From: Chiua virens | Taxonomy: Eukaryota > Basidiomycota > Agaricomycetes > Boletales > Boletaceae | Length of the DNA stretch: 64,000 nucleotides | Assembly: GCA_019787685.1 (NCBI GenBank) | Contig: JAHNUO010000004.1 | Location: 2,046,001 to 2,110,000, forward strand | Direction: 5' to 3' | Shown here: positions 37,401 through 64,000 of the stretch, piece by piece | Layout: each line of letters opens with the position of its first letter | Numbering within the stretch: the first letter of the stretch is position 1 | Made by a program: the position numbers and the translations under genes | The notes under the pieces: model-generated | Database searches by the model: none | Seen by the model: only the letters and a program-made list of their open reading frames with translations | Told to the model about the DNA's origin: nothing

Positions 37401-37639
37401 AATCGTGCATGCCCTTAGGCGATGCAAGTGCTTCGATTGACTTCATTTACTTGTATATGTACAATGACAATGACTCGAGTCCGACAAGTTGTTTTGAACT
37501 TTGAAACACTTCCATTGGGAGGGGTATACGGAAAACAGAGCAATATAAGTGATACCACCATCTATCTGCCCGCATCTTTCCTACGAGGGAAATTGGTCTC
37601 TCGATAATACTCCTTACTAACGAGGACATTATCTCCTGA

Positions 37640-38005
37640 GCGTTTGTGTGTCATTATTGGCCACGTCAGGATCTCCGATTGCTCGACGTTGGACGCGTCG
37701 GTATCGACCTCGCTTCCGTCGGCTGAATCACCGTTGTCTGTCTCGACTCCCATTGAGTCATCTGCATCAGTCCCCGCTACCATGCGCGCTGTCATCGTCT
37801 CCGTTTTTGTCGGCCGAACCAGTAGTATGGGGATGTGGGACCAATGTCAAGCTGCCATCTGTCCTGCTGTAAGCAACCCAATTATGTACGATCAACAATG
37901 CTGGGGAGGCAGCGTGACCGAGGATGGCCGTGTGTCACGGATATGATCGGATTGATAATACATAAAAAACGACCAGCGAAGCATGACTAAAGGGAGGAGT
38001 AATAT
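37640..38005 (-). pseudogene. array copy A: dead acidic N-terminal domain of the laccase family
   Basis: Clear nucleotide similarity to the first exon of the laccase-family genes: promoter with TATA region (about 38063), leader codons, the HPH-x-TG repeat core and the Asp-rich stretch. The start codon is ATA instead of ATG (38005-38003), the signal-peptide region is interrupted, and frames shift inside the repeat. The oxidase body and 3' exons are absent. It is the outermost and most decayed member, next to the hydrolase pair. Confidence 0.75.
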
Positions 38006-38795
38006 CTTGAATGTTACGAGGACGTTCGGATGAACGCCAGTGGGCTGCTCGTATTTCATCCATCGTTTATACTGGAGAGCACCAAGGATCGACGGAGTAT
38101 TACCTTGGATCTTATGTAGAAGAGCTCACCAGTATATCTCATCGCGAGTCTGGTGAGGTACCAGAACAAGGCTGAATATGGAGTTGTCGAATTGTAAATG
38201 GCCTGGAGCCGGAGTGGATCACTTCTGGTTGCAACTTGAAGGACGGACACGAACGGGTTAGTTCGCTATGTGATGTTGAGCAGGACGAGACATACTACCA
38301 TCCGACTCGTCTGGAATCGCAGGAACAATCATGAGGTCCCACTCGGATGTACGTCTGGACTGTGCATACCTGGCAATGAGAGCATCAAGTGGGCCACTGG
38401 GCAGTAGGCTCAGGTGTGTGGCTGTGTTGAACCGTTCACTTGGCGTTAGGATTTGCATAATAGGTTGCATCCGAAATTCCTGTGCTGATCCTTTCCTAGC
38501 ATCCGTCGGTAAATTATACTTAGAAATGAATCCATCCTGGATCTGTCCCACTGGCAAGATAGCAAACAAAACAGATGCCATTCCAGTGGCAATACAGACA
38601 GTAAGTATGACACGCCAAACATAAATAACCATAATCATGTCTTCCAGAGACAACAAAACATCGAGAATGAGGAACAAATACTAGTCATGAGCGATTTCCT
38701 TTGTCAAAAACACCAAACCATAGACCTAACAAATAGCACAAATAGAGAGGTTTGCACGGAAGGCTTGACCGGATCCCTGGGTTGATTTCCCCAGG

Positions 38796-39556
38796 TTAAT
38801 TCTAGTTTGAGAAGTCCATAAGCTGTATATCGTGAAATGAGCTGCATGATTACTTACGACGCTAGTATTTACGTCCGCGGCGGTATTCGTGAGTTGGTTC
38901 GCCTAAAAGGACATGAGTAAGCGATCTCACTATCATCGTAGTCTCACCTTCACGGTCGTAGGCTCCCCTGTGCTGCTCGACGGGCCCGCACCTAGGTCTA
39001 GCAGCCCAGAGAGTGCATGAATCCGTGGTCTACACTGACGTCTGCAGCGACGTCTGCAGCGACGTCTACAAGGAATAGACCGAGGACGCAGACATCCAAA
39101 ACGATGGCACCGACGCCTACACCGACGACACCGACGTTTTCTCCCAAACGCTTCTGTGTCATTACCGTCCACGTCATTATCGGTAACGATGTCACTGGCT
39201 GCGTCGGTACCGGCCACGTCGACATCAGTATTCCTGCCGTCGGCCCCGTCACTGTCGTCCGTTCCATTGTCACCGACCAACCCAGTGGCCTGGGGGTGTG
39301 GGATCGACGCCAGGGTGCCATCTACCTCGCCGTCATCATCCCCAACATCATCAAGCGCGTTGTCATCGGCTTCGTCATCATCGACCAACCCAGTAGCATG
39401 GGGATGCGAGACAGAGGCAAGGGTGCCATCTGTCCTGTGGTCATTAACCCCGCTACCATCAACAACGCTCTTGGTCGACCCGGAAACCTCGGGGGGCGGA
39501 ATCGATAAAGCATTCGAAGCGAACAGTGAAAGCATGAGTAAAGGTAAGAGCAACAT
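38796..39556 (-). CDS. array copy B: secreted acidic-repeat / Cys-Arg-rich protein (laccase body deleted)
   Basis: Exons 39556-38948, 38902-38858 and 38801-38796 join in phase and end at a TAA, giving about 219 aa. Signal peptide MLLLPLLMLSLFASNALS, then two repeats with the core TLASxxHPxATGLV followed by Asp-rich runs, then a very basic Cys-rich block (RKRRCRRCRRRCHRFGCLRP, then further RRRC units, about a dozen Cys in total) and a short tail homologous to the end of laccase exon 2 plus laccase exon 3 (NQLTNTAADVNTSV). Laccase exons 4-10 are absent; the 3' untranslated tail of the laccase genes follows. Either a new small secreted protein or an early pseudogene. The long open frame and preserved promoter and splice sites favour expression. 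Confidence 0.6.
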
Positions 39557-41545
39557 CTTGGATGTTTCGAGGATACTTGAAATGTGAAGGCTTGTGGCCT
39601 GCTTGAGCCTTCTTTATATTCAAGAGCACCAAGGATCGAAAAGGAATCACCTTAGATCCTGTTGCGAAGAGCTCAGCCTCCACTCCCTTGTTTTCGTGTC
39701 ATGCTCGCTCCCCCTATCTCTTTGTGGGGTAGATTGTAAGGACGAACATGAATGGGTTAGTTCTGTATGTGATACTGAGCAGGACAAGACACACCTGCCG
39801 ATTCATCAAACCATACGGGAACGTAGGAACGATCACAAGGTCCGACGTGGGACGGACATGAGAACTAGGGAGTCAGTGGAATCCTGGTAGCCGCGCAATC
39901 CGGATGATTTAAGGAGGTTCAATGGTTGGAATGATCCCCGTCAGTGGTCCTGTAACTTGATCCAGGTAAGTTCGGCTAGCTGTTTCCCCTGAACGGCGAA
40001 TGATGAGGGTACAATACTATCACTAGCAGTAATTCAAAAACCTGTGCAGCATTGGCGCATTGACTGGTACCGACAAAGCAGAAATGCTGGTGATGGGTCG
40101 GGATTCAGAATTGTTGATACCGATTCAATCAACCGAGTTGACCGTAAGAACCTGACAGACTCGGAGACGAACAGGCCGTAAAATTTCATGCTCGAGGTGC
40201 CACTGGCAAGGAGAAGTAGCTGCTACTAGACGCAGAAAACGTAGTTTAAGGCCTGTCAATGTGGTGGGGTTTGAAACCAAGAGCGAAGGGGCCATGTGGC
40301 CTCGAGGAATGAGCAGGACACCTGGGCATATCAGAAGTTTAGGACTTGGACTCAAAGGAATTGACACGCCATCATGAATATGCGGGTTTGCTTGTTCCTC
40401 ACACGATGGTCGATCGCTCAGTGCAATGCTGCGCCATTGGCACACTCAATCGACCAAATCATGCTAAAATCAATCGTTCCATCATACATTTCTCAATTTT
40501 GCAAAAAAAACCTTCGAGGCTCCCTACAGGCTACAGCCTCAGCTATACGCCACTTTAGAGAAACACTGGCACACTCACCTGTCGTCGGACAACGGCATGG
40601 CAAAGTGATGACAAATTTGATATCAAACACGCCTATCGGATGCGTCGGATGAAGTAATTAGCTTATGTAAGTATTCCCAGGAATGAATCTCGCAACCCCG
40701 GCGATGAAACACGCCGCCGCTTTGCACTAGATGTATGCTTTGGAGCGATGCAAACTATCCAAGTTCAACTTGATTCAGAGGTATTGCCAGCAGATCATTG
40801 TCACCTTCGCAAGATAGCCAGTACGAGAGGATGTACAGGTTGCGTGGCCCCGAACCAGAATCACCGTGAAGAATCAGTGAGATAAAGAACTTCAAAGTAA
40901 TGTGTTGGGCACCTAGGTGCAGCGTGCCTCAGCATAGTCTACAGACTCGGAAACTCAGGCTGAGCGCTGAAGGCAATTGGACGAGGGTTTTATAGATTAA
41001 GACAGCTAGTAAAGGTAATCAAAGTTCAAACATAGCCGCGGCACAACTCAGACTCAGACGTGATGAGACAAATGTCATCCCCAGGTCACCAGCTGACGTT
41101 GCTGTATTTGTCGACTCCTAGTATACGCCGGCGAATCCAAGATTGAATCCATTCCTCAATGATCCAAAAAACCCAAGTAAAATAGATGTCATTTCAGTGA
41201 CAATATAAACGATAAATATCACGAGTCAAACATAAATAACCATAATGTCTTTCAGAGACAATAAATATATCGAGAGTTGGTAATAAATATCCTTGAGCGA
41301 TTTCCCTTGTCGAAAGCACCAAACCATAGACCTAAGAAACAATGCAAAATAGAGAGTTTTGCATGGAATGCTTGACCGCAGAGTTGATTGTCCCAGGTTA
41401 ATTCTAGTTTGGAAAGTCCATAAGCTCATGTATCGCGAAATGAGCTGTAGATACTTACGCCAGTGTTTACGTCTACAGCAGTGTTCGTCGGTTGGTCCGT
41501 GACTTCAGCAAGACGTGGATGACACCGACGCTTACAGGGACGTTT
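39557..41545. other. array spacer B-C: promoter module, spacer and 3' tail of copy C
   Basis: 39600-39990 carries the upstream module shared by all copies (TATA at 39612-39618, a block around AAGAGCTCAGCCTCC, and the GGTCCTGTAACTTGATCCAG motif near 39950). 41180-41545 is the 3' tail of copy C, with AATAAATA-rich sequence like that after each laccase and the CAAACTAGAATTAACCTGGG deletion junction near 41390. No gene is supported in 40000-41150. Confidence 0.55.
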
Positions 41546-42028
41546 TCACGGATGGCAGCACGGACGGCATGGACGTTTGCATGGACGTTTGCACCGAGAT
41601 TTCTTCTTAAGCTTGTCTATCCTCCCGTCCGAGTCACCATCAGCTATACCAGCATCAGACACTTCGCCGTCGGCCACGTCGTCACCAGCTAAATCGACCT
41701 CAGCCTTGCGACCGTCGACCGCATCACCATTGTCCGTCCCATTGTCATCTACCAACCCGGTGGCTTTGGGGTGCGATGACGCGGCCAGCCAACCATCTGC
41801 ATCGTCGTCATCAACCCCGTTTTCGTCAACCGCAGTTTCGTCAGCTTCATTGTCGTCGACCAACCCAGTAGCATGGGAATGTGGGACCGAGGGCAGGGTG
41901 CCATCCGTCCCGCTGTCAACCCCCCCACCAGCAACAACGCTCTTGGACGACCCAGTAGCCTGGGGGGGAGGGATCGACAATGCATTAGAAAAGAAGAGTG
42001 AGAACACGAGTAAAGGGACGAGGAACAT
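41546..42028 (-). CDS. array copy C: secreted acidic-repeat protein with Cys-rich tail (laccase body deleted)
   Basis: Single open exon of 160 codons. Signal peptide MFLVPLLVFSLFFSNALS, proline-rich IPPPQATGSS, two Asp-rich repeats with HPKATGLVDDN-type cores, an Asp/Ala stretch, then a basic Cys tail KKKSRCKRPCKRPCRPCCHP and stop. The Cys-rich tail corresponds in position to the Arg-rich block of the complete laccases but has been remodelled. Downstream laccase exons 2-3 survive only as fragments; exons 4-10 are gone with the same junction as copies B and E. TATAAAAG lies at 42081-42088, about 55 bp upstream. Probably a small secreted protein; function unknown. Confidence 0.6.
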   Translation of the reverse strand: MFLVPLLVFSLFFSNALSIPPPQATGSSKSVVAGGGVDSGTDGTLPSVPHSHATGLVDDNEADETAVDENGVDDDDADGWLAASSHPKATGLVDDNGTDNGDAVDGRKAEVDLAGDDVADGEVSDAGIADGDSDGRIDKLKKKSRCKRPCKRPCRPCCHP

Positions 42029-44782
42029 CCTGAAGATTGCGAGGATCTTTGTGTGATGGCTTGTGTTCTTCTCGAACTTCTTTTATACTCGAGAGCACTG
42101 AGGATCGAGAAAAGTTGCCTTGGGTCCTGTTGCAAAGAGCTCAGCCTCCATCTCCGTATATTGGTGTTATATCATTCGAGCTCCACTCATTGATTCCCTA
42201 TCTCTGTCATCACAGGATTGGCAAGGTACCAGGAAAGATCTAAAGAGATGACAAGTTGTAGACTCGCCTGGTGGGTGGAGTGGACCACTCCTGGTTGTAA
42301 GGACGAATACAACAGGCCATCTTAGACATACCCGCCGCCTCGTCAGGCTATACGGTAACGCAGTAGGGACGATCGCGAGGACCGATGGGCATCTGTATAC
42401 CGCAAGGAAGCGCCTAGCAGCAGTTGAGATGGAGTGAGTCACGATTACCTATAGGAATACGACTGAAAAATAAAGGAGCTCGAAGATTCCTACATGACAC
42501 GGGTATGACAGCTGTAAAGAGTCATCCGAAACTCAGTAGCCGCGCTACCGGTCCTGTAACTCAATCAAGGTAATTTTAGCTAACTTTTACACTCCAGGGA
42601 AAATGATGGTACAGGATAATTCAGAACCTTGTGGAGTATCAGCGCACTAACTGGCAGTGCTCCCACTGATACAAACGGAAGTGTTGGCTGAGGGTCGGGA
42701 AACTATGGAGCTCGGACATTATGGAAACCATTTACAGTCATTACATAGCAGGCCTTTGAAACGAAGTTGAGATAGCAGCATGCGGCACTGACTTGTAGAT
42801 CAAATGATTTACCAAGTTACATAATTGCTGTGGCCAAAAAGGTTAAATTGGTCGACGTTGGGCCTGCTCGCGCTTTTCTAGTTCAGTTACCCACCAATCA
42901 TGAGTGACCCAGTAGGTCCCATCATTTACTAGTACACTGAGATACGGATGGGGGTACTTTTGAGAAGAAGCCTCAGGCTGTTTTTGGATGTTGCTATGGG
43001 TGTACTATGGCACCGTGGCATTGGCACGGGAGGCATATATGGCGAGCGTGAGTTGCGAGGGCAGGAGAACCTAGCATTACCTGCATTCTAGGTAGTGTCA
43101 CGCAGGTAAAGGTAACTGTGGTGTGCCAAAAATGTAGTTTGATGGCTCAGTGGGGTAGTGAAAGGTGGGAGACAGCGAGGCGTTGATGGTGGGGGATAAC
43201 TTGAATGTCAGCCCAAAGAAGTGGCGGCTCCTGTGGCTGTGCTTGTTCCTCGCGGCCGCATTAGGCTGGCACAACCTTGTGCTCAATCCATTGAACCCTG
43301 TTCCTTGGACAATTAATTGGACTTCCCAAGCTGCCCAATACAGTTTGAGCTCTCGTGAAATCAGTGATCCCATCACATTTCACAATCTTAGAGAACGGAA
43401 ATTACTTACTTCCCCCCTCGTATTAGGTACCGTTTTCTGGGTCCCAGTTTGGAAAAATAAATTCACAACACTTCATATCTAGCCTCGACTGGCATCTCGT
43501 TACATTTCGTGTCGTCATTTTTATTCTTCACATCTAGCAAGGCGAATCAGAAGGGGATGTTTCATGTCTTGCCAGTGTACGAATTATGGATACAAGAGGT
43601 ATTCCCCCGAGTCTTTGGGAAACGTGAAATCCATCCCTTCCTATTAGTTCCCTTGACAGTTCAGGCCCAGGCTTGCTCCATATGGACCTGCAGAGTGACC
43701 CATATATATGAGCCTAGGCCCCTAGTAGCGGTAGCACTGGCGTATGGTAACAAGTCCATCAAACACAGCCGTGCTGTTGAGCGTGTGGGGATTCAGCTTC
43801 GCACTTTCCTCTGTTCATTACTTGTTCAGTCCCATAGGTTCTTCGATCAGTTTACTATTCTCCACACCAGTGTCCCCTCTCGCTCGGTCGCTCTGAGTCG
43901 GGTTTCGTCTTGTTGTGTTTTTGTGATCGTGCGTTTTCCATGCGTGTTTCCTCCCCACCTTCCTTTCCACCGATGTATAAGTATCTCGGTCCGATGATTT
44001 ACTCACTGTTAATAGTGTCATTCCGAGTCCTGACTTTATGTACTACTAGTACTTGGTCGGATTTCGATGCTATCCCCTCGTATGTCACGGTCCTCACGGA
44101 GTGTCACACCGCTGAATTCACATTCCGCCAGCATCGATGTACAGAATCGATTAGACTAAGTATTGGGCGAGTGACCACTGCGTGACAGAGGCCAAGTGCA
44201 CGATCTCAATGCATATTCCTCATAATGCCCAGGTCCCTACTGTAGACTGTAGTATACTTAGTCCTGTGATCGCGCCTCAGACTAGCTCTTCTCGTGCTGA
44301 GACTGTTTTTCGTCATAGTGCATGTCACCTTGAATGTTAATGTCATCCTTTTCAGTCATGCATCCGGTGAACGTACTTGAACTTCACCGTCGGCGGCTCA
44401 GATTTAGTACAAAAATTCTGGATATCACAGGTCCACCACGATAATCATCCTATAGCTGTCTCAGGGAAAACAGATGCCATTCCAGTGACAATATACTTAT
44501 AATAAATAAATAACCTAGACAATAAATATGACGAGTCAAGCATAAATATCCACAACCTTGTCTTCCACAACTTCCAGAGACAATATAGAATTAGTAATAA
44601 ATAGCCTCGAGTGATTTCCCTTGTCGAAAGAACCAAATCGAGGATCTAGGGAACGGTCCAAGGCCGAGAGCTTTTCCGGAGCTCGCGTCACAGGGTTGGT
44701 TGCCTCAGGTCAGTCTTAGTTGCACAATCGACGCCAATCGACTAAAATGAAAATAAAATAAAATAGAATAAGCGTTTGCAAT
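42029..44782. other. array spacer C-D
   Basis: 42029-42600 holds the shared upstream module of copy C (GGTCCTGTAACT near 42550). 44440-44780 is the AATAAATA-rich 3' tail of laccase D. In between, frames such as 43165-43482 and 43509-43997 (+) have no domain or splice support, so I see no gene. Confidence 0.5.
42081..42088 (-). promoter_or_regulatory. TATA box of copy C
   Basis: TATAAAAG on the minus strand, 53-60 bp upstream of the ATG at 42028, at the same place as in the other copies. Confidence 0.6.
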
Positions 44783-47209
44783 TTACCTGGCACGTTGACG
44801 TGACGTACCAGGAGGCCGCATCTTGGATGTTTGACCGGTCGATTCAGCCATCACGACAGCGAATCCGCTGGAACACGCGTCAGTTCGTAAACCCGGTATC
44901 CGTTGGATTGAACTGAACGTACTGGTGGAGATGCCAATCGATGTGACTAGAAATAGAGCATGAGATTATAACCTGGTTTGACGAGACCCTTGATAATACT
45001 TCACTCACCAGTGAATGATCCAAGGTCCCGGGTTGTCGGTGCGGAAACGGATGGTCACATTGTCTGAGGGGTCAGTCCCCATGGACACGACATCACGTCG
45101 GACAGGATTTACGAAGTTGGTAGTTTTGCTACCGGAAACCCTCACAACGGAGAAATCGTGCTGTGAAATTGTCTGAATGACCAGGAAAAAAGAGTCAAAG
45201 TTGGCCACATACGCCATGCAAATGGATAGGGTGCTAAAGAAGAAAGAAAAAGTCAGTTTGAACCGACATTTCAACAGTGTTACACTTACGGGCTTGCCAG
45301 GTAACAAGGGAGCATTGTTGGGGAAGCTTATCTCTATGACCTTGTTCGGAGGAAGTTCATAGAGACTTCCGCTAGGCATCAATTGTGAGGGATGCAACTT
45401 TCCACTGAGAATCTGGAGAAGAACGGGGGTGGAAGGGTCTTTCCAGGTCACGTTGTTGATTTGCCACAATCTCGTCGACGGGTCGAGGCTAGGCGTAAGC
45501 TGAAGGCTCACATCCGCATTTCCGATTCCGGGCCTCCCAGGAGCACGTGGGTTGCGCAGTGGGTGGAGTTTGCCCTCATCGAACGCGAGCTTGTAAGGCC
45601 CAGGCCTGGACCTGGGTTCCCTCCTTGGTGCTCCAACATATCGCAAGATAGCTGAATTTATACCGCCGGTAAAATTGCCATTCTGGTTCGTGCTGGCGCG
45701 AATCCAGTAGTTCCCAACGGGTCGGTTTGCTTTCACAACCACTGAGTAGCGTTGACCGGCGAAAACGGGTAACGAGTCCACTCGTACGGGTTTCACTTCA
45801 CTCCCATCCGCCTCGATAATGGTCATTCGGTGACCATCGATAGTGAAGTTGAACCAAGGATCGCAGGACATGCTGATAACACGGAAGCGATAGCGTAACC
45901 CACGGCGAACTCGGATGACCGCGAGCGATGATCTTGGACCCCCAGGATAACGGCCACGGCCATTGATCAGAGTCGAATTTGCAGGCACCGCAGCGAGGAT
46001 ATTTCCAAGTTGGGGACCCAGGTTATGATACCTGATTCTGGGTCAACCAAGAGATTTTGCACAAAAAATTGCTCACCAGTCCGACAAGGTTATAACTGTC
46101 CTCGCTGTTTGCAAGTTCAAAATAAAGAACGTACAACGTGATGGAAACGTACCATTATCGACGTCGTACCTTCGCCTGTGCGGGTCACGAGGGTCATAGA
46201 TTACCAGTGGTCCTCGAAGTCCGTCGCAGTATTGAACTCCATAGTGTGAGTGGTACCAGTGTGTCCCAGACTGCTTCCCGATGTTGAATCGATACAAAAA
46301 AGATTTCTGTTGTTTGATCGGGCACTGAGTCACCCAAGGAACACCATCAGCCCAATTGGTCCTTGTTTGAAAGATTCCATGCCAATGCTTTGGGAGGTCC
46401 ATGAGGATGCAGATCGCGAAATCAGCTGTATGATTACTTACGACACTAGTTTCTACGTCCATGTTAGTATTCCTGAGTTGATTCGTGACTCGAATGGCCG
46501 CTCGACGGCCCTAGAAGGACATAAGTACGCGATCTCGCTGTCATCGCTATCATCATCTCACCTTTCTGGCTGTGATCAATGGCCCCGGAAATACGCCATT
46601 AGCGAGGACAGCTCTATGGATTGTCAGAATGTACCAGGAGCAGTAATCCACATCAACTTACGATCGGCGAAACCCATCCGGAGCGATGTTACGGTTCACG
46701 ATTCTAAGCTGACGTCTAACCGGACGACCTGGTCGCGGACGTTTTCTTGCAGAAGGCTCTGTGTCGTTACCGGCCACGTCACCGTCGTCCACGTTGGCAT
46801 CGTCGTCCGCGTCGGCATCGTCGTCCACATCGGCATCGATCACATCGACATCGGATACGTCGGGATCAGCTTCGCTGTCATCCACATCAACGTCGTCTAC
46901 CTTGTCGTCATCAGTGATTCCGGTGGCCTGGGAGTGGGAGATCGAGGGCAGGCTGCCTTCTGCCTCGCCATCATCGTCCACACCCTCATCATCCCCGCCA
47001 TCATCAACCGTGCTGTCATCGACTTCGTCGTCATCGGCCAACCCGGTAGTATGGGGATGTGGGACCGAGGCCAAGTTACCGTCCGTCCCGCTGCCCTCAG
47101 CCGCACTGCCATCGACAATGTCCTTGGTCGACCCAGAAGCCTGGGGGGGAGGGACCGATAACACATTAGAAAAGAATAGTGAAAGCACGAATAAAGGAAG
47201 GAGTAACAT
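44783..47209 (-). CDS. laccase-like multicopper oxidase with acidic N-terminal extension (copy D)
   Basis: Secreted oxidase of phenol-type substrates using O2. Ten exons join in phase: 47209-46662, 46613-46562, 46510-46442, 46387-46153, 46104-46077, 46031-45290, 45233-45213 (21 bp), 45160-45009, 44946-44923 (24 bp), 44867-44783; 651 aa. Signal peptide [18 protein letters not shown]; residues about 20-165 are Asp-rich repeats with HPHTTG and HSQATG cores; a basic link [13 protein letters not shown] leads to [20 protein letters not shown], the usual laccase N terminus. Copper motifs: HWHG (224-227), HSH (269-271), HPIHLHG (559-565, alone on the 21-bp exon) and HCHIDWHLHHGF (615 on), with Phe at the usual axial position. 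The laccase core is normal; the insertion before it is not. TATA 50-60 bp upstream. It looks functional. Confidence 0.9.
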
Positions 47210-49519: not shown

Positions 49520-49784
49520 GAGAATCCTCTGGGCGCGTGAGAGTGGCATCTATAGGGAGTGAAATGGGTTTTCATCGACTGCATCTTTTAGGTCTTCCCG
49601 ATACGACGTTGAAAAGTCACGGTCTTGGCTTCAGATCATGCAACCTCCAAGTTTTTCCCCCAACCGGTCCTACTATGATGTTCCTATTCTCACCACTGGA
49701 GCTGGGCACTGCATCTCAAATAGCTTTCCTGAAGTCGTCGTTGAAGGGGAATTGAAGACACTCAGTGAATTTGAAACAGCCTGA
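49520..49784 (+). pseudogene. alpha/beta-hydrolase C-terminal relic 1
   Basis: Resembles the end of the intact hydrolase at 36529-37400: a degraded ENPLW..SGIYRE segment, then PILTTGAGHCISNSFPEVVV and LKTLSEFETA-stop. The catalytic GAGHW has become GAGHC, frames shift, and the N-terminal two thirds are missing. It is followed by array copy E, the same order as hydrolase copy 2 and array copy A at 36.5-38 kb. Confidence 0.75.
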
Positions 49785-51279: not shown

Positions 51280-51681
51280 CTAGACCCGAAGTGGACGGCG
51301 TTCACACTCATTTGTGCCGGGACGTTTAGTACATTGAGGTGAACTTCCGCCACCGCCGCCACCACTACCTCCTTTACCTCCATGGTCACGATCGCGACCC
51401 CCACGACCCCCATGACCACCGTGACCACCACCATGACCACCACCATGACCACCACCATGACCACGATCGGGAATACTGTCATCAGCCGTGTCACCGTCGG
51501 CTGTATTATCATCGACCAACCAAGTGGCCTTGGGGTGTGGGATCGAGGCCAAGGTGCCGTCTACCCCGCTGTCATCAACTCCACTACCATCAACAACGGT
51601 CGATCCAGAACCCTGAGGGGACGGGATCGATAATGCATTAGAACAGAAGAGTGAAAGCGCGAGTAAAGGGAGGAGTAACAT
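51280..51681 (-). CDS. array copy E: secreted His/Gly-rich protein (laccase body deleted)
   Basis: Open exon of 133 codons. Signal peptide MLLLPLLALSLFCSNALS, one acidic repeat (TLASIPHPKATWLVDDN), then a tail not seen in the other copies: DRGHGGGHGGGHGGGHGGHG, followed by RGGRDRD, a poly-Gly run and a Cys-containing end (CTKRPGTNECERRPLRV). The His-Gly repeats are encoded by a 12-bp CCACCATGA-type minisatellite (plus-strand view). Runs of HGGG can bind Cu(II) or Ni(II); a metal-binding role next to copper oxidases is attractive but only inference. Laccase exons 4-10 are deleted at the same junction as in B and C, although here the last acceptor AG is lost. TATA at 51733-51740. Confidence 0.6.
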   Translation of the reverse strand: MLLLPLLALSLFCSNALSIPSPQGSGSTVVDGSGVDDSGVDGTLASIPHPKATWLVDDNTADGDTADDSIPDRGHGGGHGGGHGGGHGGHGGRGGRDRDHGGKGGSGGGGGGSSPQCTKRPGTNECERRPLRV

Positions 51682-54236
51682 CTTGAATGTTGTGAGGATC
51701 TTTGTGTGAAGACTTGTGGGTGGCTTGTGCTTCCTTTATACGAGAGCACTGAGGATCAATAATACCTTTTTTTGCCTGCTGCGAAGAGCTCAGCCTCCAT
51801 TTCTTTATCCTTGTGTTGTATCATTTGAGTTCCATTATCATTCATTCCCCCTATATCCCTCATCGCAGAACTGGTAAGGCACCAGCAGAAGACTGAATAT
51901 GGTGATGGTGAATCATTGTGGATGGAGTACATCGCTCCTGGTTGTAAGGACAGATACGAATGGGTCAATTCGCTATGCAATATTGAACAGAACGAGACAC
52001 ACTCGGCGGCTCATTAGACTATACGGGAACGTACGAGGTCCGGTGTGGACCCATACATATATCTGCCAATGAGCAGCAAGAAGACACGCAGTAACTTGAA
52101 CAGTCAAGATGGAGAGTCCCAACCACCCTGACGACACTGTCGAAACTGAAAATCGGAGAGCTTGAAGGAGTCGTATGCATACTATGATGCACAAACGGAC
52201 CTGTGACATGACCCAGGTGACTCTGGCTACCGTTTCCCCTCGGAGAAGATTATACAATAATATCCATGCCGGTATACACGCTGACTTGCTGTGTTCCCGC
52301 GGACAAAAACAGAAGTAGTGGTTGATACATTGATGCGTCGGACATTTGTGAGGTTCCGAGTTGAGATCATTCGACATGCGTGTCAGTGGCTGTGCTCGTA
52401 CCTTCGTCGCCCCATCACATTTTTGATGATTTTGGAGGATGGAAAATTCTTCTCCCTGGTCAACCCCTCTCCTAAGGTACAGCCTGAGTGTCCCGGTCAC
52501 CGAATTGTGACCTCAGGCTTGCTGTCCAAGCTAACTGCACTGTGCACTACCTCGGAACTTCCACCCCGTCATCGCGCATTGCATACCCGCCATCGCGAAA
52601 TCCACTTTGAGCGCGCCTGCTACTAGTCACGGTATCGTCTTGAACCAGTCACGAAAGTGATCGTCCACAGCGTCTTCCAGTGTGTTCTTCTCGTGATCCC
52701 AATCTCGGTCTTCACGCGCCGGCTCCCGCATGTCCTGCAAAGCAAGCATCCTTGGAGATCGCAATGCTACCCCCACGCGGACATGCAAAAACCTACAGCC
52801 CATCGGGAACCCCCAAGGCTTGCACTCCGAGGAACATGAACCGATATGCAGAACTGCTTTATTGGCATCAAATCCTGTGACTGCTTTGGTACTTATCTCG
52901 CACCACATAGATCTCGAGCGACTCACCCACGGACACCACCTCCACGTGCTCCATGACTACCTTCAAGCTCTCATTATGAAGCTTAGCCGCCTTCTCCTTG
53001 ATGGCCACTTCTTCACTTTGAGCACCGGTGCGTGACGAGTCTCCGAGTCAGTAAAGTCCTTCCCTTGAAGCTTGTGAAAGGGGACATGATGATCAAGGGG
53101 CGGTACTCGGTCAACTTGAGCGCTCTCGCCGTTCTGCGAGATAAGGATGAGTTTGACACGCATATAGGTAGGTACGACGAACACCAGCCAGAGACAAACA
53201 CGACGGGCTGGAGGCCACGGAGAACCATTCAAATCGAGTATATGAATCAAAAGGTATGACCCCATTTCTATTCGACGAGCGGACGTGTTAATTGTCCATG
53301 TAGCTCGGCGCAAGCGAACGTGCCCAAAGATCAGGCTGACATAGTGTATGATTTCGGGTTCTTGTCCATGACGTGTGTCAAGATAAAGCCAGAATATACC
53401 TGTGAGCGCTTAGATGGGTGAACGATTGGTCAATCACTAGGACCCTGTAGCCATCTTCGATTCGTAAAATGATGAGTTCTTTGTCTGTGTAATCCTATTA
53501 ATGTACTTATCGATTGAGTTGGCACTGGTCTGTCAAGTCGTACATTTAAAGTGACTGCCTGACAAACTGGATGCTCGCAATCGTGCACCACATCGCAGAA
53601 AAACATTGTCGTTGCGTGGGGTCCGCGCAGATTCTTTCTCAATTACAACAACTCGCAGTATCCAATAGAATCGTTGCCACCTCCACGAGAAAATCATTCT
53701 CCAGGATTGCGTTATCGTAGAGGTGGTATCCCAAGTCCACATGCTCAGACAGAGACTTAGGAACGTGGACAAGGGGTTTGGTGGGGGACTACGGTGGTCA
53801 TTTATTAAAGGCGGTCAAACTCAGCATCGTCGACTCAGGCTCAGACTCGAGAACTTGACACGCATATGAGACATGAGGAATTAGGTCTTCAGACGTTGCT
53901 AGGTTCGTCATGCCCAACTATCCGCCGGCCACAGCCGTCCTAGGAGCGCAACCAAACTAGTTGTTCCAGTACTAGTGACGATATACAATATCTCATCATA
54001 AATAAATAACCTAGACAATAAATATCACGAGCCAGGAATAAATAACCATAATTATGTCTTCCAGAGACCATATATGCAGAGTTAGTAATAAATAGCTTGA
54101 ACGATTCCCTGATAAAATAGAACTAAGAAACAGTGCGAATGAGAGTTTTCACTGGAGCGTTGATTGGCGCAAGTGTTGATTCTAATTACACAATTGACGC
54201 CAGTCGACTGCAATGACAACAAATCAATACTACAGT
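51682..54236. other. array spacer E-F
   Basis: 51730-52240 holds the upstream module of copy E. 53950-54236 is the AATAAATA-rich 3' tail of laccase F. Between them are open frames of 60-120 codons on both strands (for example 52627-52926 -, 52963-53313 -), some with coding-like composition, but stops and frame changes prevent a model. Probably decayed sequence. Confidence 0.45.
51733..51740 (-). promoter_or_regulatory. TATA box of copy E
   Basis: TATAAAGG on the minus strand, 52-59 bp upstream of the ATG, equivalent to the element before laccases D, F and G. Confidence 0.6.
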
Positions 54237-56686
54237 TTATCTAGCATGTTGAGGCAACGCACCCGGAACTGGTAGCCTGGACGCTTGAGCGGTCGATTCA
54301 GCCATGACAACAGCAAATCCGCTAGAACAGGCGTCAGTACTTAACTCGGCATCTGTTGAAGCGAAGCGAACGCACTGGTGGAGATGCCAGTCAATATGGC
54401 TAGAAATGGGGTTCGAGATCATCACATCGTTTGACAGGAGTCTTAGTGGCAATTCACTCACCAGTGAATGATCCAAGGTCCTGGATTATCTGTGCGGAAA
54501 CGGATGGTTACGTTGTCTGAAGAGGCGCTCCCCATGGACACGACGTCGCGTCGGACAGGATTCACAAAGTTGGGAGTGTTGCTGCCAGAAACTCTCACAA
54601 CGGAGAATTCGTGCTAAAAAGATGTCTGAATGACCAACCATAAGAGTCAAAGGGGGCCACATACGCCATGCAAATGGATGGGATGCTATAAAGAAATCAG
54701 GAATCAGCTAGGACCGACGTTTCATGAACGTTATACTCACGGGACCACCAGGTAAAAAGCCATTATTAGGGAAGCTTAATTCTACGACCTTATTCGGAGG
54801 AAGTTCATAGATACTTCCGCTAGGCAGCAATTGCGCGGGATGCAAGTTTCCGCTGAGAATCTGGAGAAGAACGGGGGTGGGAGGGTCGTTAAAAGGTACG
54901 CCGTTGATTTCAAACAATCTCGTTGATGTGTTGAGGCTAGCAGCAAGGCGGATGTTCCCGTCCGCATTTCCGATTCCGGGCCTCCCAGGAGCAGCTGGGT
55001 TGATCAGTGGGTGAAGTTTTCCCTCGTCGAACGCGAGTTGATACGGCCCAGGGCTTGACGTGGGTTCGCTGTTTGGCGCTTCAGCATATCGTAAAATGGC
55101 AGAATTCACACCGCCCGTAAAACTAGGGTTCTGGGCCGGCGTACTGGAGCGAATCCAATAGTTTCCAATGGGCTGGTTCGCTGTTACAACTACGGAGTAG
55201 CGTTGACCAGCGAAGATGGGTATCGAGTCGACTTGTACGGGTTGCACTTCACTCCCATCTGCCTCGATGATGGTCATCCGGTGGCCATCGATAGTAAAGT
55301 TGAACCAAGGATCGCAGGACATGCTGATAACACGGAAGCGATAGCGCAACCCACGGCGGACGTTGATAACCGCGAGCGGCACCGCTGGACCACCAGGATA
55401 ACGGCCACGTCCATTGATCAAAGTCGAATTTGCAACCACATTGCCGAAGATATTGCCAAGAATGGGTCCCGCGACATGATACCTAAACCCGTGTCAGCAG
55501 GGAGACTTCTGTGCAGTGGAAATTGCTCACCAGTCTGACAGGGTTACAACCGTGCGATCTATTTGCAATTTCAACATAATGAATGTTCACAATGCGTGGA
55601 AACGTACCGTCATCAACGTCATACAATCCTTTGTGAGGATCATTAGGGTCATAGATAATCAGTGGTCCTCGCAGTCCGTCGCAGTATTGAATTCCATAAT
55701 GTGAGTGGTACCAGTGCGTCCCCGTCTGGCCGACATTGAATCGATACAGAAAAGATCTTTGAGGTTTAATTGGGCACTGAGTAACCGAGGGAACACCATC
55801 AGCCCAGTTGGTCCTTGTTTGAAAGATCCCATGCCAATGCTTTGAGAATTCCGTAAAAATTCAGATCACGAAATGAGCTTATAGATATGACGACTCACGA
55901 CGCTAGTGTTTGTATCCATGGAGGTATTTGTGAGCAGATTCGTGACTCGAATGGCAGCTTGACGGCCCTGGAACGACATGAGTGCGCGATCTCACTACCG
56001 GGGTAATCTCACCTTTGTGAGTCGGATTATTGGCCCGGGAAATACACCATTTGCAAGGACCGCTCTATGGATTGTCAGACAATGTACTAAGAGCAGAAAT
56101 CAACATCAACTTACGATCGGCTAAACCCGTCCGGTGCTATGTTACGGTTCACGATCCTAAGTTCTCCATTGTTAACGAGTCCCGGTCCCGGTTGACCTGG
56201 GGGTCCTGGTCCCGGACGGCCTGGAGGTCTTGGTCCCGGACGACCCGGAGGTCCTGGTCCTGGTCGACCCGGAGGTCTTGGTCCTGGACGACCCGGAGGT
56301 CGTGGACCCGGACGGCCTGGAGGGGTTCTAAACGCATCTGTATCGTCGTCGTCGGCATTGCTGCCATCAGCTGGGTCGCTATCATCTGCCCCGTCGTCAT
56401 CTGGCAACCCGGTGGTCTGTGGGTCTGGGACCGAAGCCAGGCTCCCGTCTGCCTCGCTGTCATCATTCCCACTATCACCAACTGCGCTGCCGTGGACTCC
56501 GTCGACATCGGCCGACCCGGTGACCTGGGGGTGCGGGGTCGAGGACAGGCTGCCATCTATCTTGCTGTTATCAATCCCATTGCCATCCACGATGCTGTCA
56601 TCGGTCGACCCGGAAGTCTGGGTAGGCGGGATTGATAATACATTAGCAGCGAAGAGTGAAAGAACGACTAAAGGGAGGAGTAACAT
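54237..56686 (-). CDS. laccase-like multicopper oxidase with acidic and Pro/Gly/Arg N-terminal extension (copy F)
   Basis: Same ten-exon design as copy D: 56686-56115, 56064-56013, 55967-55899, 55839-55608, 55558-55531, 55482-54741, 54685-54665 (21 bp), 54613-54462, 54399-54376, 54321-54237; 658 aa in an unbroken frame. Signal peptide [18 protein letters not shown]; acidic repeats with HPQVTG and DPQTTG cores; then about 50 residues of [24 protein letters not shown] repeats encoded by a 24-27 bp minisatellite (about 56180-56325), leading to [16 protein letters not shown]. Copper motifs HWHG (232-235), YHSHYG, HPIHLHG (566-572), HCHIDWHL with Cys at 623, then [11 protein letters not shown]. 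Exon sizes equal those of D except exons 1 and 4. Expected to be secreted and active. Confidence 0.9.
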
Positions 56687-58959: not shown

Positions 58960-58974
58960 ATCGATTTTTATCTT

Positions 58975-59130
58975 CTAGGTTCAGTACGACGTCGGAACAA
59001 AATATTGAGAGTGACGGTCTTGGCTGCAAGTCATCCAATCTCCATGCCCTGCATGATCGAAAACATTCTGCCTTGTTATCACGTTCGCCTGGTCGTCGGC
59101 GGGCCATACATTATCCACCAAGAGTGGCAA
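58975..59130 (+). pseudogene. alpha/beta-hydrolase C-terminal relic 2
   Basis: A short stretch reading RVTVLAASHPI...ILPCYHVRLVV matches the WKVTILAADPA...IQPYPHVRTVTV segment of the intact hydrolase. It stops before the catalytic His and runs straight into the 3' tail of laccase G. It is a second relic in the same position relative to an array unit. Confidence 0.65.
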
Positions 59131-59427
59131 GCAAAACGACTGTCATTCCAGTGACGACATACACATAATAAATAAATAATCAAAACAATAAATATCACGA
59201 GTCAAGCATAAATAACCATAATTATGTCTTCCAGAGACAATATACTGAGTACTTCGAAATAAATAGCTTAAAGTGAATCCCCTGGTCGAAAGCCCAAAGA
59301 AACAGAAAAATGGAGAGCTATGAACGGAAGGTTTGACCTGCTCACACCTTAGGGTTGATTTCCCCAACTTAAGCCTGGCACAATTGACGCCAGTCGACTG
59401 TAATGAGAAAAAATCAAGATCTGCAGT

Positions 59428-61916
59428 TTACTTGACGGGTTCAAGTGACGTACCCGGAGGCTGTAGTTGAGACGCTTGAGCAGTCGATTCGGCCATTACA
59501 ACAGCGAATCCGCTAGAACACGGGTCAGTTCTTGAACTCGATATCCCTCGAATGAAACTGAACGCACTGGTGGAGATGCCAGTCGATGTGACTAGAAATA
59601 GGACGTGAGATCTTAACCTGGCTTTACAGGATCCTTGATGGTAATTCACTCACCAGTGAATGATCCAAGGTCCAGGGTTATCGGTGCGGAAACGGATGGT
59701 GACATTGTCGCCGACATTTGTCCCCATGGACACGACGTCGCGGCGGACAGGATTCACGAAGTTGGGGGTGTTGCTACCAGCAACTCTCACGACGGAGAAC
59801 TCGTGCTGTAAAAATGTCTGAATGATCAGAAAAATGGTCAATGAATGGGCCACATACGCCATGCAAATGGATAGGGTGCTAAAGAAGTAAGCAAGAGTCA
59901 GCTTGTACTAATGTTTCGTGAGCATTATACCCACAGGACCACCAGGTAAAAAGCCACTGCTCGGGAAGGGGAAGTTTATCTCTATGACCTTGTTGGGAGG
60001 AAGTTCATAGATACTTCCACTAGGTAGCAATTGCGCAGGATGCAAGTTTCCTTTGAGAATCTGGAGAAGCACAGGCGTGGGAGGGTTACTCCAGGTCACG
60101 TTGTTAATTTGCCACAATCTCGTCGAATTGTCGAGGCTAGGAGCAAGCTGAATGCTCACGTCCGCATTTCCAATGCCGGGATTCCCGGGAGCTGCTGGGT
60201 CAATCAATGGATGAAGGCCACCCTCATTGAAGGTGAGTTGATACGGCCCAGGCTTTGACGTGGGTTCACTGCTCGGCTGTCCAGCGTATCGCAAGATGGC
60301 CGAATTTATACCACCTGTGAAATTGCCATTTTTGTTTGTGCTGGCGCGAATCCAATAGTTTCCAGGTGGCTGGTTTGCTGTTACAACAACGGAGTAGCGT
60401 TGACCAGCGAGGATGGGTATCGAATCAACTTGTACAGGTTGCACTTCACTCCCATCTACTTCGATAATGGTCATTCGGTGACCATCAATGGTGAAGTTGA
60501 ACCAAGGGTCGCAGGACATGCTGATGACTCGGAAGCGATAGCGCAACCCAGGTTGAACATTGACAACCGCGAGCGGGGCCGTTAGATTTCCAGGATAACG
60601 ACCGCGACCATTGATCAGAGTCGAATCTGGATCCACATTACCGAGGATCTCGCCGAGTTCAGGACCCAGTGTATGGTACCTAAGTTGGGGTCGGCCAGAA
60701 GACCTTGTTGCACAAAAATTTGCTCACCAGTCTGACAGGGTTATAACGGTGTTCGCTGTTTACAATGTCAACATGAAGAATGTTTATAGAGTGTGGAAAC
60801 ATACCGTCATCAACGTCATACAATCCTTTGTGAGGGTCATTAGGATCATAGATAATCAGTGGTCCTCGCAGTCCATCACAGTATTGAATTCCAAAATGTG
60901 AGTGGTACCAGTGTGTCCCAGTCTGGCCGACATTGAATCTATACACAAAAGATTTCTGAGGTTTGATCGGGCACTCAGTAACCCAAGGAACACCGTCAGC
61001 CCAGTTGGTGTTTGTTTGGAAGATTCCATGCCAATGCTTTGGGAAGTCCATAAGGACACGGATCACGAAATGAGCCGTATGATTACTTACGATGTCAGTG
61101 TCTACGTCCATGGAATTATTCGTGAGTTGATTCGTCACTCGAATAGCAGCTTGATGGCCCTGGAGGAACATGAGTCCACGACCTCATTATCGTTGTAATC
61201 CCACCTTTGTGAGGCTAATTGTCGGCCCGGGGAATACACCATCGGCAAGGACAGCTCTGTGAGTTGTCAGCGATGTGCGAAGAGCAGCAATCAACATCAA
61301 CGTACGATCTGGAAAACCCGTCCGGCGCGATTTCACGGTTCACAATACTAAGTTCTCTACTGTCAACCAGAGTCTGAACTGGTTGCGGACCTGGCGTTGG
61401 CGGTTGTGGTCCCGGTCCCGGTCGCGGGCCTGGGCGTGGGCGCGGACGTGGACCCGGACGTGGGCGCCGACCTGGGCGAGGGAATGGACGTGGGTGAGGG
61501 CGAGGGCGTGGACCCGGACGCGGGCGAGGTAGCGGTCTCCTAAAGGTGTTTGGGTCATCACCGGCCCCGTCATCATCATCCGTTTCATCATCGGCCTCGC
61601 CGTCACCGGCTGGGTCACCGCCGTCGTCAGCGAACGACCCGGAGGCCTGGGGGTGCGAGATGGAGGCTAGGCTGCCAACTTCCTCGGCATCATTAGTCCC
61701 ACTGTCATCAACCACACTTCCATCTACTCCGTTCTCATCGGCCGACCCGGCAGCCTGGGGGTGCGGGATCGAGGCCAGGCTCCCATCTATCCCGCTGTCA
61801 TTAACTCCGTTACCGGCGACGATGCTGTCATCGGTCGACCCGGAAGCCTGGGGAGGCGGGATCGATAATGCATTAGAAAGGAACAATGAGAGCACAACTA
61901 AAGGGAGGAGTAACAT
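59428..61916 (-). CDS. laccase-like multicopper oxidase with acidic and Arg/Pro-rich N-terminal extension (copy G)
   Basis: Ten exons: 61916-61306, 61256-61205, 61159-61091, 61036-60805, 60755-60728, 60679-59935, 59878-59858 (21 bp), 59805-59654, 59591-59568, 59512-59428; 672 aa in frame. Signal peptide [18 protein letters not shown]; acidic repeats with three HPQAxGS cores; then a strongly basic block of about 60 residues made of [24 protein letters not shown] units, leading to [24 protein letters not shown] (245-248), YHSHFG, HPIHLHG (580-586), HCHIDWHL with Cys at 637. The GTACGT donor of exon 1 and the GTGGGT donor of exon 6 are slightly weaker than in D. The start was placed at the Met of the signal peptide although an open frame extends upstream, because the TATA box lies only about 60 bp before it. 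Confidence 0.9.
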
Positions 61917-64000
61917 CTCGGATGTTACGAGGGTGTTTGGGTGAATGCTTCTGGACTGCTCATACTTTGCTTCCTTTATACCCGAGAACACCAAGGATCG
62001 ACGAGGCATTACCTTGAGTCCTGTTGTGAAGAGCTCAGCCTCCACGGCCTTACCCTTGTGTCATACCGTTTGAGTTCCACCACCAGTTATTCCGCCACTC
62101 TCATCACAGGATCAGTAAGGTACCAGGAAAGGACTGAATAAAGAGTTAGTGAATCGCGATTCAGCCCGGAAGGCAAAAAGCATCACTCCTGGTTGTAAGG
62201 ACGAGTTAGTTTGCTACCCGATATTGAGCAGGACGCCGAGACACATCCGCCGATCCATCAGACGATAAGCGAATGTAGGAACAATCAAAAATTGAGGGCC
62301 GATGTGTATCTGTATACTTGACAATGAGTGGTAACAAGGAGGGAATCAGCAATAGTCAAGATGGAGTGAGCGTTGCATACCCTAATGACTGGTTATGTAA
62401 AGTCGGACACCAGAAACTTGAAGCTTGAAGATTCCCATATAATAGCTGTAAAGAGCCGATCGAATCTAGGTGGTCATGCCACTATGATTCCTGGAGCTGG
62501 TCCTGTAACTTGATCCAGGTGACTTCGGCTAGCTACCCCCCCACTGGCACGGAGCATGATGTTGGTATATGTACGATAATTCGGAATCTCATGTGCGGTA
62601 TCGGAGCACTCTAGCACTGACGAAGATTCAGACTTGCTAATGCTGCCACTGACAAGAACGGAAGTGTTGGTTAATGGGTCGGGATTTGTGGCTCCCAACG
62701 AGATCATCCAATCGACCAAGACATTACTTAGCTGGCCACAAAAACTTAGGACAGTAGCAGGCGCCCACTGACTGCAGATCAAATGATTTACGGACTTGCA
62801 TAAATGCCGCAGTAATATACGTTCGTAACGTTCCTATTTCCATCAGATTGAGCGATTCAGCTAGTCTCATAATTTACAGTCCTAAGCGCTTGGATTCAGA
62901 TACGGTCATTCAATATTCAGACACCTTCGAGAGTTGTATTATTTTTCACACGGGCTGGGCCAATATGACTTCCTCGTAAATCAAATCGCCATAAGGCAAC
63001 CCATTGACAATCTCAGCCCATCCACCACTGGTGATTAGTTGACTGGTGACCGTACTCACCCCATTTTCATTGTATAAATCCTGCCCTCCTCCAAATCCTC
63101 ATGTCGTTCTATCCATCCGAGTGACATTTTGTCCGCACCACGGTCTCACTCCCACGGACATATACCTGACCTGAACACTCCTCTTGGCCCGCGGCCTGCC
63201 ACGTCAGTGATATTATGCACATCTGGGTAGCGTGGGGCTGGTGTCTCCTATTGAACTCCTTGCACGCCCTAGAACACAGCTCACGGAGAGAATAGCGAGT
63301 GAAAGCGTACACTAGTGCTTGCAGAGCCCTGGAAAGCTGGGGCTCAAATACAGCAGGGTCCGAACCCACTGCCATCTGGTCCCCGTTCGCCCCGTAGTGA
63401 CGCCACATTCAGGCAAGGTACGGACTCTAGTTTCCCCTGCGCCGGCCCTTTCGAGATGTCCGTCAATCAACCTTCTGTCCCTCGGAGACCTGCGGGCGAT
63501 CTGTTATGGTGAAATCAATTCAAGTTCTCCTGTATCTTTCACACCTGTGGAAAACGAACCAGTACTACCCCTCGCCAGACATACTGTACGACAAGCAAAC
63601 ATCACTTGTCTTACAACAGCATCACGCCGAAGTGATAACAGAATGGATGCGAAGTACCGCTACCTCCTTTCATTTCCAGTCGTTGCTCGTGTGATTCATT
63701 ACAGATAGCTCATAGGACTCGGCGGAAGCCATATCAAGCCACTGTCGTCTTGCCGGATCAAATTAAACCCCATAAGATCCAAACAACTTGCAGAGTAGTG
63801 ACGTACCAAGACCCTAGCTAGGCAACACGAATACAATAGGAAGCCATTAAACACAGCCCATGATGTCGATCCTTTGCGCTCGCCTCGCCCTCCTGCACTC
63901 CGACATCCCGACCTCACATACGTGGCGAGCCAATTGTTATTCACCCCGTCTGGTTTTTTATCTACAACGTCAGACAAGTACAGAGTTTGTCACAGGGCTC
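61917..64000. other. upstream module of laccase G and outer spacer
   Basis: 61970-62560 is the shared upstream module (GAAGAGCTCAGCCTCC, then GGTCCTGTAACTTGATCCAG near 62500). 63050-63530 repeats the 58300-58800 spacer. The frames present are short, with no domain. The array may continue beyond the window edge. Confidence 0.5.
61973..61980 (-). promoter_or_regulatory. TATA box of laccase G
   Basis: TATAAAGG on the minus strand, 57-64 bp upstream of the ATG, in the block conserved before all array copies. Confidence 0.65.

What the first reader, a model, noticed from the sequence alone, without database searches (positions are those of the whole stretch)
37640..62560. Tandem array of laccases carrying a long acidic/basic low-complexity domain before the first cupredoxin
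Three complete multicopper oxidases (D, F, G) insert about 150-190 residues between signal peptide and laccase domain 1: Asp-rich repeats with a TLASxPHPxATG-like core, then an Arg/Pro/Gly block. Ordinary basidiomycete laccases go from signal peptide almost directly to the domain corresponding to [10 protein letters not shown]. All four copper motifs are kept, so a working oxidase seems to be fused to a secreted disordered polyampholyte. Possible roles are wall or melanin anchoring, phase separation, or substrate or metal recruitment.
Basis: partly seen in the sequence, partly recalled or inferred. Interest (0 to 1): 0.85.

Follow-up and report, generated by a model that had tools for sequence, protein, structure and literature searches.

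The report
Laccases wearing charge-balanced disordered coats
A mushroom genome holds three laccase enzymes with a long, floppy, strongly acidic front end that offsets the positive charge of the rest of the protein, and the same front end also lives on in small predicted secreted proteins that have lost the enzyme, which suggests a new way to build and switch charged secreted proteins.

Summary
Confirmed and extended. The window is from the bolete Chiua virens. Units D, F and G encode complete laccases of 651, 658 and 673 aa. Signal peptide, acidic repeats, basic block and the start of cupredoxin 1 lie in one open exon 1. The extension (about 150-170 aa) is predicted to be disordered (tested on D) and was not found in the other relatives examined. 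(1) Units B, C and E, and five more gene types elsewhere, look like laccase genes that lost the catalytic body in one shared deletion. They kept promoter, signal peptide and acidic domain and carry exchangeable tails (Cys/Arg, His/Arg, Pro-rich, Gly/His). (2) Charge is balanced. D's laccase domain is pI 10.6, net +30, against pI 4.5-7.0 in 117 relatives. Of its 28 private charge changes, 27 are positive. With its -38 extension, whole D falls back into the normal laccase range. A second copy of the region keeps D, F and G open, and all six coding indels found are multiples of three. Best reading: an acidic, disordered pro-region that neutralises a cationic partner during secretion and lets go at acid pH or after cleavage, as proposed for defensin and cathelicidin precursors. 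The mechanism is inferred.

The parts
44716..47209 (-). Laccase D, 11 exons, 651 aa; extension net -38, laccase domain net +30 (pI 10.6)
   Evidence: identical to public protein P0002
46751..47155 (-). D acidic domain (net -45), predicted disordered, two LASxPHPxATG-like cores
   Evidence: (pLDDT<50 for residues 1-157)
46703..46750 (-). D short basic block with the only dibasic site not followed by Pro in the D/F/G extensions (RR-Q, residues 165-167), close to the laccase domain start
54182..56686 (-). Laccase F, 11 exons, 658 aa; extension net -16, laccase domain net +4
   Evidence: public annotation P0005 starts at an internal Met and lacks the extension
56330..56632 (-). F acidic domain (net -24)
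56156..56329 (-). F Pro/Gly/Arg block holding the 24-bp tandem repeat (56179-56323); the C5 copy is 48 bp longer
59369..61916 (-). Laccase G, 11 exons, 673 aa; extension net -12, laccase domain net -10
   Evidence: equals P0001 minus 31 N-terminal residues
61542..61862 (-). G acidic domain (net -26)
61347..61541 (-). G Arg/Pro block (net +14)
38936..39556 (-). Unit B: laccase-less derivative; signal peptide, acidic domain, 8-Cys Arg-rich tail; remnant of laccase exon 3 downstream. The public model of its C5 copy (P0122) leaves the tail out as an intron
41549..42028 (-). Unit C: laccase-less derivative; signal peptide, acidic domain, Lys/Arg/Cys tail
   Evidence: C5 copy annotated as P0121
51283..51681 (-). 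Unit E: laccase-less derivative; signal peptide, acidic domain, Gly/His-rich tail
37600..38100 (-). Unit A: decayed copy with promoter-like and acidic remnants, frame disrupted in both copies of the region

Best explanation
D, F and G are basidiomycete laccases in which the short linker between signal peptide and cupredoxin 1 has grown into a disordered, charge-segregated polyampholyte: Asp-rich repeats, then a basic block. The acidic part acts as an intramolecular counter-charge (a charge-neutralised pro-region). It covers the Arg-rich block and, in D, a catalytic domain that has become strongly cationic, keeping the protein near-neutral and soluble on its way out. Near pH 4, where Asp side chains take up protons (or, in D, after cleavage at the dibasic site close to the enzyme), the cover lets go and a cationic laccase sticks to polyanionic surfaces such as walls, pectin, melanin or humic matter. 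The laccase-less relatives carry the same acidic pro-region with short cationic or His/Pro/Gly tails instead of the enzyme. Shown: gene structure, open frames in two copies, one clade, one shared deletion junction, charge balance, directional charge change in D. Inferred: disorder in vivo, secretion, processing, pH release, what is bound.
For: Complete models and copper motifs. D, F, G open in the second copy of the region; laccase pN/pS 0.04 (D) and 0.02 (F), extension 0.40 and 0.08; six coding indels found at DNA level in nine compared pairs, 6 of 6 multiples of three. Residues 1-157 of D below pLDDT 50, laccase blocks mostly 70-96. Laccase domain: D net +30, pI 10.59; F +4, pI 8.80; G -10, pI 6.03; 117 public relatives outside the array, some truncated, pI 4.52-7.04. 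D private charge changes 27 plus, 1 minus; net +26 against 109 other rows with mean 0.2, SD 4.1, maximum 11. Whole-protein charge at pH 7: D -6, F -10, G -20, all inside the range of 107 control domains, -35 to -1; at pH 4 D reaches +59 against a control maximum of 45. Acidic and positive parts anticorrelate over 11 family members, r = -0.86, permutation 0.00099. D, F, G one clade 100/100 next to a non-extended paralog 95/91. The same charge-balance pattern is described for defensin and cathelicidin precursors (PMC4571063, passages).
Against: No RNA or protein data. F and G have no dibasic site outside a Pro context, so cleavage cannot be the common step. G's laccase domain is not basic (net -10) and its private charge changes run the other way (4 plus, 17 minus, measured against its two nearest rows). 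The charge correlation weakens without D (r = -0.65, p = 0.04, n = 10; Spearman p = 0.09) and without D and B (r = -0.58, p = 0.10); members are related and the split point was chosen to maximise segregation, so p-values are optimistic. G's extension has 5 nonsynonymous and 1 synonymous differences, so constraint is not shown there. Public models disagree with mine: F is annotated from an internal Met; P0123, whose first residues match the C5 copy of G, is a 168-aa product without laccase; P0122, the C5 copy of B, drops the Arg/Cys tail as an intron. The pH figures treat every side chain as free and exposed, and all control laccases are also positive at pH 4 (15 to 45).
Confidence: 0.45

Rival explanations
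1. Oxidatively cured coacervate: laccase-bearing and laccase-less polyampholytes are co-secreted, condense by opposite charge into a sticky extracellular phase, and the laccase cross-links phenols inside it, much as in glues that pair oppositely charged proteins with a catechol oxidase (glue comparison recalled; search listing only).
For: Strong charge segregation in the extensions; promoter regions of 14 family sequences align with each other and with the non-extended laccase L022, so co-expression is plausible; both forms sit side by side in one array.
Against: The laccase-less proteins have 0 or 1 Tyr and 0 or 1 Trp each (11 of 11 sequences), so they offer little for direct oxidative cross-linking. 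Whole proteins are charge-balanced internally rather than being separate polyanions and polycations.
Confidence: 0.2
2. Low-complexity drift: repeat slippage lengthened a tolerant linker, it does nothing much, and the laccase-less copies are debris of unequal crossing over.
For: 24-bp repeat number differs between the two F copies; the extension is less constrained than the laccase (pN/pS 0.40 in D; not constrained in G); laccase-less pairs reach 0.84; unit A is decayed; tails differ strongly between members; some charge segregation is modest (E 8 and C4:2144142 27 of 1000 shuffles).
Against: Six of six coding indels in frame (the laccase-less frames were chosen because they are open, so this is weaker for them); no internal stops in the second copies of D, F, G; extension pN/pS 0.08 in F; laccase-less pairs all below 1, from 0 (E, on one difference) to 0.84; 27 of 28 private charge changes in D positive, far outside 109 comparison rows; signal-peptide-like starts in 8 of 8 laccase-less gene types.
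Confidence: 0.25
3. Metal or substrate recruiter: Asp-rich and His/Cys-rich stretches bind Cu, Mn or Fe and feed or localise the oxidase.
For: Asp-rich domains in all members and His-, Cys- or Gly/His-rich tails in several laccase-less ones.
Against: The D, F, G extensions have no Cys and only 2-3 His each; it does not explain the charge shift of D's catalytic domain.
Confidence: 0.08

Closest known systems
Basidiomycete laccases (three-domain multicopper oxidases; best PDB match of G is 9gly chain A, then 1hfu and 1a65)
   Same: Three Cu-oxidase Pfam domains in D and G, four copper motifs in all three, intron-rich gene, strong purifying selection on the domain in D and F
   Different: About 150-170 residue acidic/basic block before cupredoxin 1; D's domain is pI 10.6 instead of 4.5-7.0
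Defensin and cathelicidin precursors (charge-balance hypothesis)
   Same: Signal peptide, anionic pro-region, cationic remainder, opposite charges that scale with each other
   Different: No sequence relation claimed; here the cationic partner can be a 480-aa enzyme; processing and antimicrobial action untested; Asp-rich repeats
LPMOs with disordered polyampholytic C-terminal regions (PMC8615602, passages read)
   Same: Secreted copper oxidase with a disordered polyampholyte
   Different: There C-terminal, weakly charged and neutral; here N-terminal and strongly segregated. That paper states that, to its authors' knowledge, no such C-terminal region had been seen in laccases

Membership tests
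Basidiomycete laccase | Three cupredoxin domains | tested here: met
   Cu-oxidase_3, Cu-oxidase, Cu-oxidase_2 above cut-off in D and G; for F only the precomputed domains of its truncated public model P0005
Basidiomycete laccase | Four copper-binding motifs (motif letters recalled) | tested here: met
   3 of 3
Basidiomycete laccase | Domain 1 starts soon after the signal peptide | tested here: not met
   167 (D) and 219 (G) residues before the domain in the public models, 175 in my F model, signal peptide included; 106 of 112 aligned relatives have 58 or fewer
Basidiomycete laccase | Oxidase activity | not testable with these tools
   no enzyme data
Charge-neutralised cationic-peptide precursor | Signal peptide, anionic pro-region, cationic remainder | tested here: met
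   signal peptides by eye only; the public model of B's C5 copy lacks the cationic tail
Charge-neutralised cationic-peptide precursor | Charges of the two parts anticorrelate | tested here: met
   r = -0.86, n = 11; -0.65 without D, -0.58 without D and B, -0.85 for the eight laccase-less genes alone
Charge-neutralised cationic-peptide precursor | Proteolytic release of the cationic part | tested here: inconclusive
   Dibasic site not followed by Pro in D and in B, L014/L015, L017b/L018b, L019; none in F, G, C, E, L016, L017a/L018a; cleavage itself not testable
Charge-neutralised cationic-peptide precursor | Antimicrobial activity | not testable with these tools
   no assay
LPMO-type disordered C-terminal region | Position after the catalytic domain | tested here: not met
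   N-terminal; charged fraction of the extension 0.38, 0.23, 0.26 in D, F, G

The most novel reading that the evidence does not exclude
A laccase gene turned into a platform for charge-neutralised secreted proteins: an acidic, disordered pro-region arose in a laccase, the enzyme domain was driven to the opposite charge in one copy, and one deletion removed the enzyme altogether, so that the pro-region was re-used in at least eight gene types with swappable cationic, His-, Pro- or Gly-rich payloads resembling the main composition classes of antimicrobial peptides (resemblance recalled, not tested).
Probability: 0.3. Interest if true: 0.85.

Novelty: new variant of a known kind. Interest (0 to 1): 0.64.

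Why it matters
It gives a natural case in which an enzyme domain and a disordered tail appear to have co-evolved in charge, and in which loss of the enzyme created a new family of predicted secreted proteins while the regulatory and targeting parts stayed. It makes a concrete, testable claim about how disordered charged segments tune secreted oxidases, and offers a natural supercharged laccase of possible biotechnological use.

Tried and rejected
Frame or assembly artefact: rejected, since a second copy of the region (C5) keeps D, F and G open over their full length while differing from the window by 18, 2 and 5 nonsynonymous changes in the extensions and one 48-nt in-frame indel in F.

Correction made on checking: the indel lengths printed came from a protein-guided alignment and are multiples of three by construction. 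I recounted on plain DNA alignments: six coding indels in nine pairs, all multiples of three.

Extension common in laccases: not found. Of 112 relatives with an aligned domain start, six have more than 58 residues before it: D, G, two whose N-terminal part looks like laccase itself (P0003, P0006), and two that are not acidic (P0048 with 9 acidic and 13 basic residues, P0062 with 3 and 6). An extension search over 7964 scored candidates and a family search over 7989 found only Chiua proteins. Both candidate lists were truncated, and rests on the best 120 of 4427 listed relatives. Unannotated ORFs in other boletes were not searched.

Known domain in the laccase-less proteins: none above cut-off in 8 of 8 sequences; two weak matches (E 0.052 and 0.25) are below their cut-offs. 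A weak Trypan_PARP match in G (E 2.3e-4, 21.6 bits against a cut-off of 100) is read as composition bias. Single-sequence structure of B: mean pLDDT 52.5, not used. G+C drift as the cause of D's Arg gain: GC3 0.557 against 0.519 and 0.517, judged too small.

Literature: ten searches, of which some aimed at charged, disordered or extended laccases. I saw listings only, some cut (20 of 31 papers, 15 of 128, 25 of 37). No listed title or abstract opening described a laccase with such an extension. Most subscription papers are not in that library. Passages were read in two papers only (PMC4571063; PMC8615602).

Not done: surface mapping of D's gained Arg/Lys; signal-peptide prediction by a dedicated program.

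Full report
What was checked. The finding describes three laccases with a long low-complexity N-terminal block. Reading both strands of the window and a second copy of the region in the same genome confirms it. The protein database names the organism: the matching public proteins are from Chiua virens and sit on a contig of 2,635,601 bases, the same length as contig C4 that holds the window. A nearly collinear copy lies on C5; two haplotypes of a dikaryon are the simplest reading (inference).

Gene models. D (47209-44716), F (56686-54182) and G (61916-59369) each have 11 exons joined by GT-AG introns and give 651, 658 and 673 aa. D equals the public protein P0002; G equals P0001 minus 31 upstream residues. 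F is annotated publicly only from an internal Met (P0005). All four copper motifs are present in 3 of 3, and D and G score above the Pfam cut-offs for all three Cu-oxidase domains. Signal peptide, acidic repeats, basic block and the IVNR start of the enzyme lie in one uninterrupted exon-1 frame.

The extension. After 18 residues of signal peptide (assigned by eye) there are 151, 159 and 172 residues before IVNR (149, 157 and 170 if the domain is counted from two residues earlier). Acidic parts have net charge -45, -24 and -26, basic blocks +7, +8 and +14. Shuffling each extension never reached its charge segregation (0 of 1000 in each). AlphaFold puts residues 1-157 of D below pLDDT 50 and most of the laccase domain at 70-96 by ten-residue block, with loops down to 51. 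F and G were not modelled.

Is it coding? Between the two copies the laccase domains show 3 nonsynonymous and 22 synonymous differences in D, 1 and 20 in F, 0 and 1 in G. The extensions show 18 and 14, 2 and 9, 5 and 1. Corrected for sites, pN/pS of the extension is 0.40 in D and 0.08 in F; G has too few changes and leans the other way. Six laccase-less pairs run from 0 (E, one difference in all) to 0.84. On plain DNA alignments of these nine pairs there are six coding indels, all multiples of three, one of them the 48-nt difference in F's 24-bp repeat. The laccase-less frames were picked as open frames, so the indel test is weaker for them. Both forms look like maintained coding sequence, the extension more loosely than the enzyme.

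Laccase genes without laccase. A search of the whole genome with G's exon 1 gave 22 matches. Besides D, F and G they include B, C, E in the array, the decayed A, a partial match at C5:216878, and five further laccase-less gene types: C5:2252657/C3:2666086 (His/Arg tail), C5:2207817/C3:2595262 (Pro/Phe tail), C5:2213535/C3:2601013 (8-Cys Arg tail), C5:1944608 (Pro/Arg tail) and C4:2144142 (Gly/His tail). Their promoter regions align with those of D, F, G and of the non-extended laccase L022, TATA-like stretch included. At or after their tails they keep remnants of laccase exon 3 and intron 3, joined to sequence that begins about the laccase stop codon. By eye, the same junction (AAACTAGAATTAA and close variants) is seen in 8 of 8 types. 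One ancestral deletion of the catalytic body, followed by duplication, is the simplest account (inference). The 8-Cys pair also carries two further acidic-basic exons that read on in frame if the introns are as I place them. Against a simple reading of the tails, the public model of B's C5 copy, P0122, removes the Arg/Cys tail as an intron, and P0123 gives the start of G's C5 copy a 168-aa product without laccase; whether these models rest on transcripts is not known to me.

Origin. In a tree of 28 laccase domains D, F and G form one clade (100/100), next to the non-extended Chiua paralog L022/P0008 (95/91); D's letter make-up departs from the model's assumption. In L022 the same position holds a short linker, SIPQLSGDINLKSRATLGPNAQ. 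Thus the extension most likely grew once, in a lineage leading to Chiua (inference).

Charge. Laccase domains of 117 public relatives outside the array, some of them truncated, have pI 4.52-7.04. D's is 10.59 with net +30, F's 8.80 with +4, G's 6.03 with -10. Compared with F, G and four Chiua paralogs, D has 28 private charge changes, 27 of them positive. Repeating the count for each of 110 rows against its two nearest relatives below 85% identity gives D +26 net; the other 109 rows have mean 0.2, SD 4.1, maximum 11. In the same test G is the most negative row (-13); if its two nearest rows are F and D, as their identities suggest, part of that mirrors their change. With the extension added, whole D, F and G have charges of -6, -10 and -20 at pH 7, inside the range of -35 to -1 for 107 control domains. 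Over 11 family members the acidic and the positive part anticorrelate (r = -0.86; permutation 0.00099). Without D it is r = -0.65, p = 0.04 (Spearman p = 0.09); without D and B r = -0.58, p = 0.10; among the eight laccase-less genes alone r = -0.85, p = 0.008. Shared ancestry makes these p-values optimistic, and the split point was chosen to maximise segregation.

How it may work. The pattern matches the charge-balance idea for defensin and cathelicidin precursors, where an anionic propiece is thought to neutralise a cationic mature peptide (PMC4571063, passages read). I propose that the Asp-rich segment is such a cover, here for an Arg-rich linker and in D for the enzyme itself. Two release routes are possible. 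Near pH 4 the Asp charges fade and D's computed charge rises to +59, above the control maximum of 45, although control laccases also turn positive there. Or D is cut at RR-Q shortly before the enzyme; F and G lack such a site. Neither is shown. A coacervate glue, a metal recruiter and simple drift are the rivals; the scarcity of Tyr and Trp in the laccase-less proteins counts against direct oxidative curing of those proteins.

Comparison with what is known. A survey of LPMOs reports disordered polyampholytic C-terminal regions and states that, to its authors' knowledge, none had been seen in laccases (PMC8615602, passages read). Ten paper searches, five of them aimed at this question, listed no laccase with an acidic disordered N-terminal extension. 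Closest solved enzymes are ordinary laccases.

Verdict. Observation confirmed; interpretation partly supported and extended. The anatomy is firm, the mechanism is an inference at about 0.45.

Noticed in passing
L017:7631-8190 and L018:7615-8170: The 8-Cys laccase-less genes carry two further acidic plus basic exons (Arg/Gly type, then Arg/His type), each starting with a laccase exon-3 remnant: exon duplication with change of payload.
   Followed up: partly
window 56179-56323: 24-bp tandem repeat in F's Pro/Gly/Arg block is 48 bp longer on the C5 copy: a length-polymorphic disordered linker.
   Followed up: yes
L014 and L015: The paired His/Arg-tail genes on C5 and C3 keep the composition of the tail while its sequence is rearranged by in-frame indels and many amino-acid changes.
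   Followed up: partly
window 38936-39556 and L017:7035-7601: Tails of B and of the C5:2213535 gene share eight Cys, mostly spaced CxxxC; no Pfam family matched.
   Followed up: partly
window 35175-35858 (-) and 36660-37136 (+): Two alpha/beta-hydrolase fragments in opposite orientation, similar in sequence, next to the array.
   Followed up: partly
window 21718-22419 (-) and 31786-32325 (+): FMN-dependent dehydrogenase fragment and aquaporin-type (MIP) channel exon elsewhere in the window.
   Followed up: partly
P0003 (Gymnopilus dilepis) and P0006 (Pyrrhoderma noxium): Public proteins of 1042 and 965 aa in which the part before the matched laccase domain looks like laccase itself; real fusions or merged gene models.
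   Followed up: no
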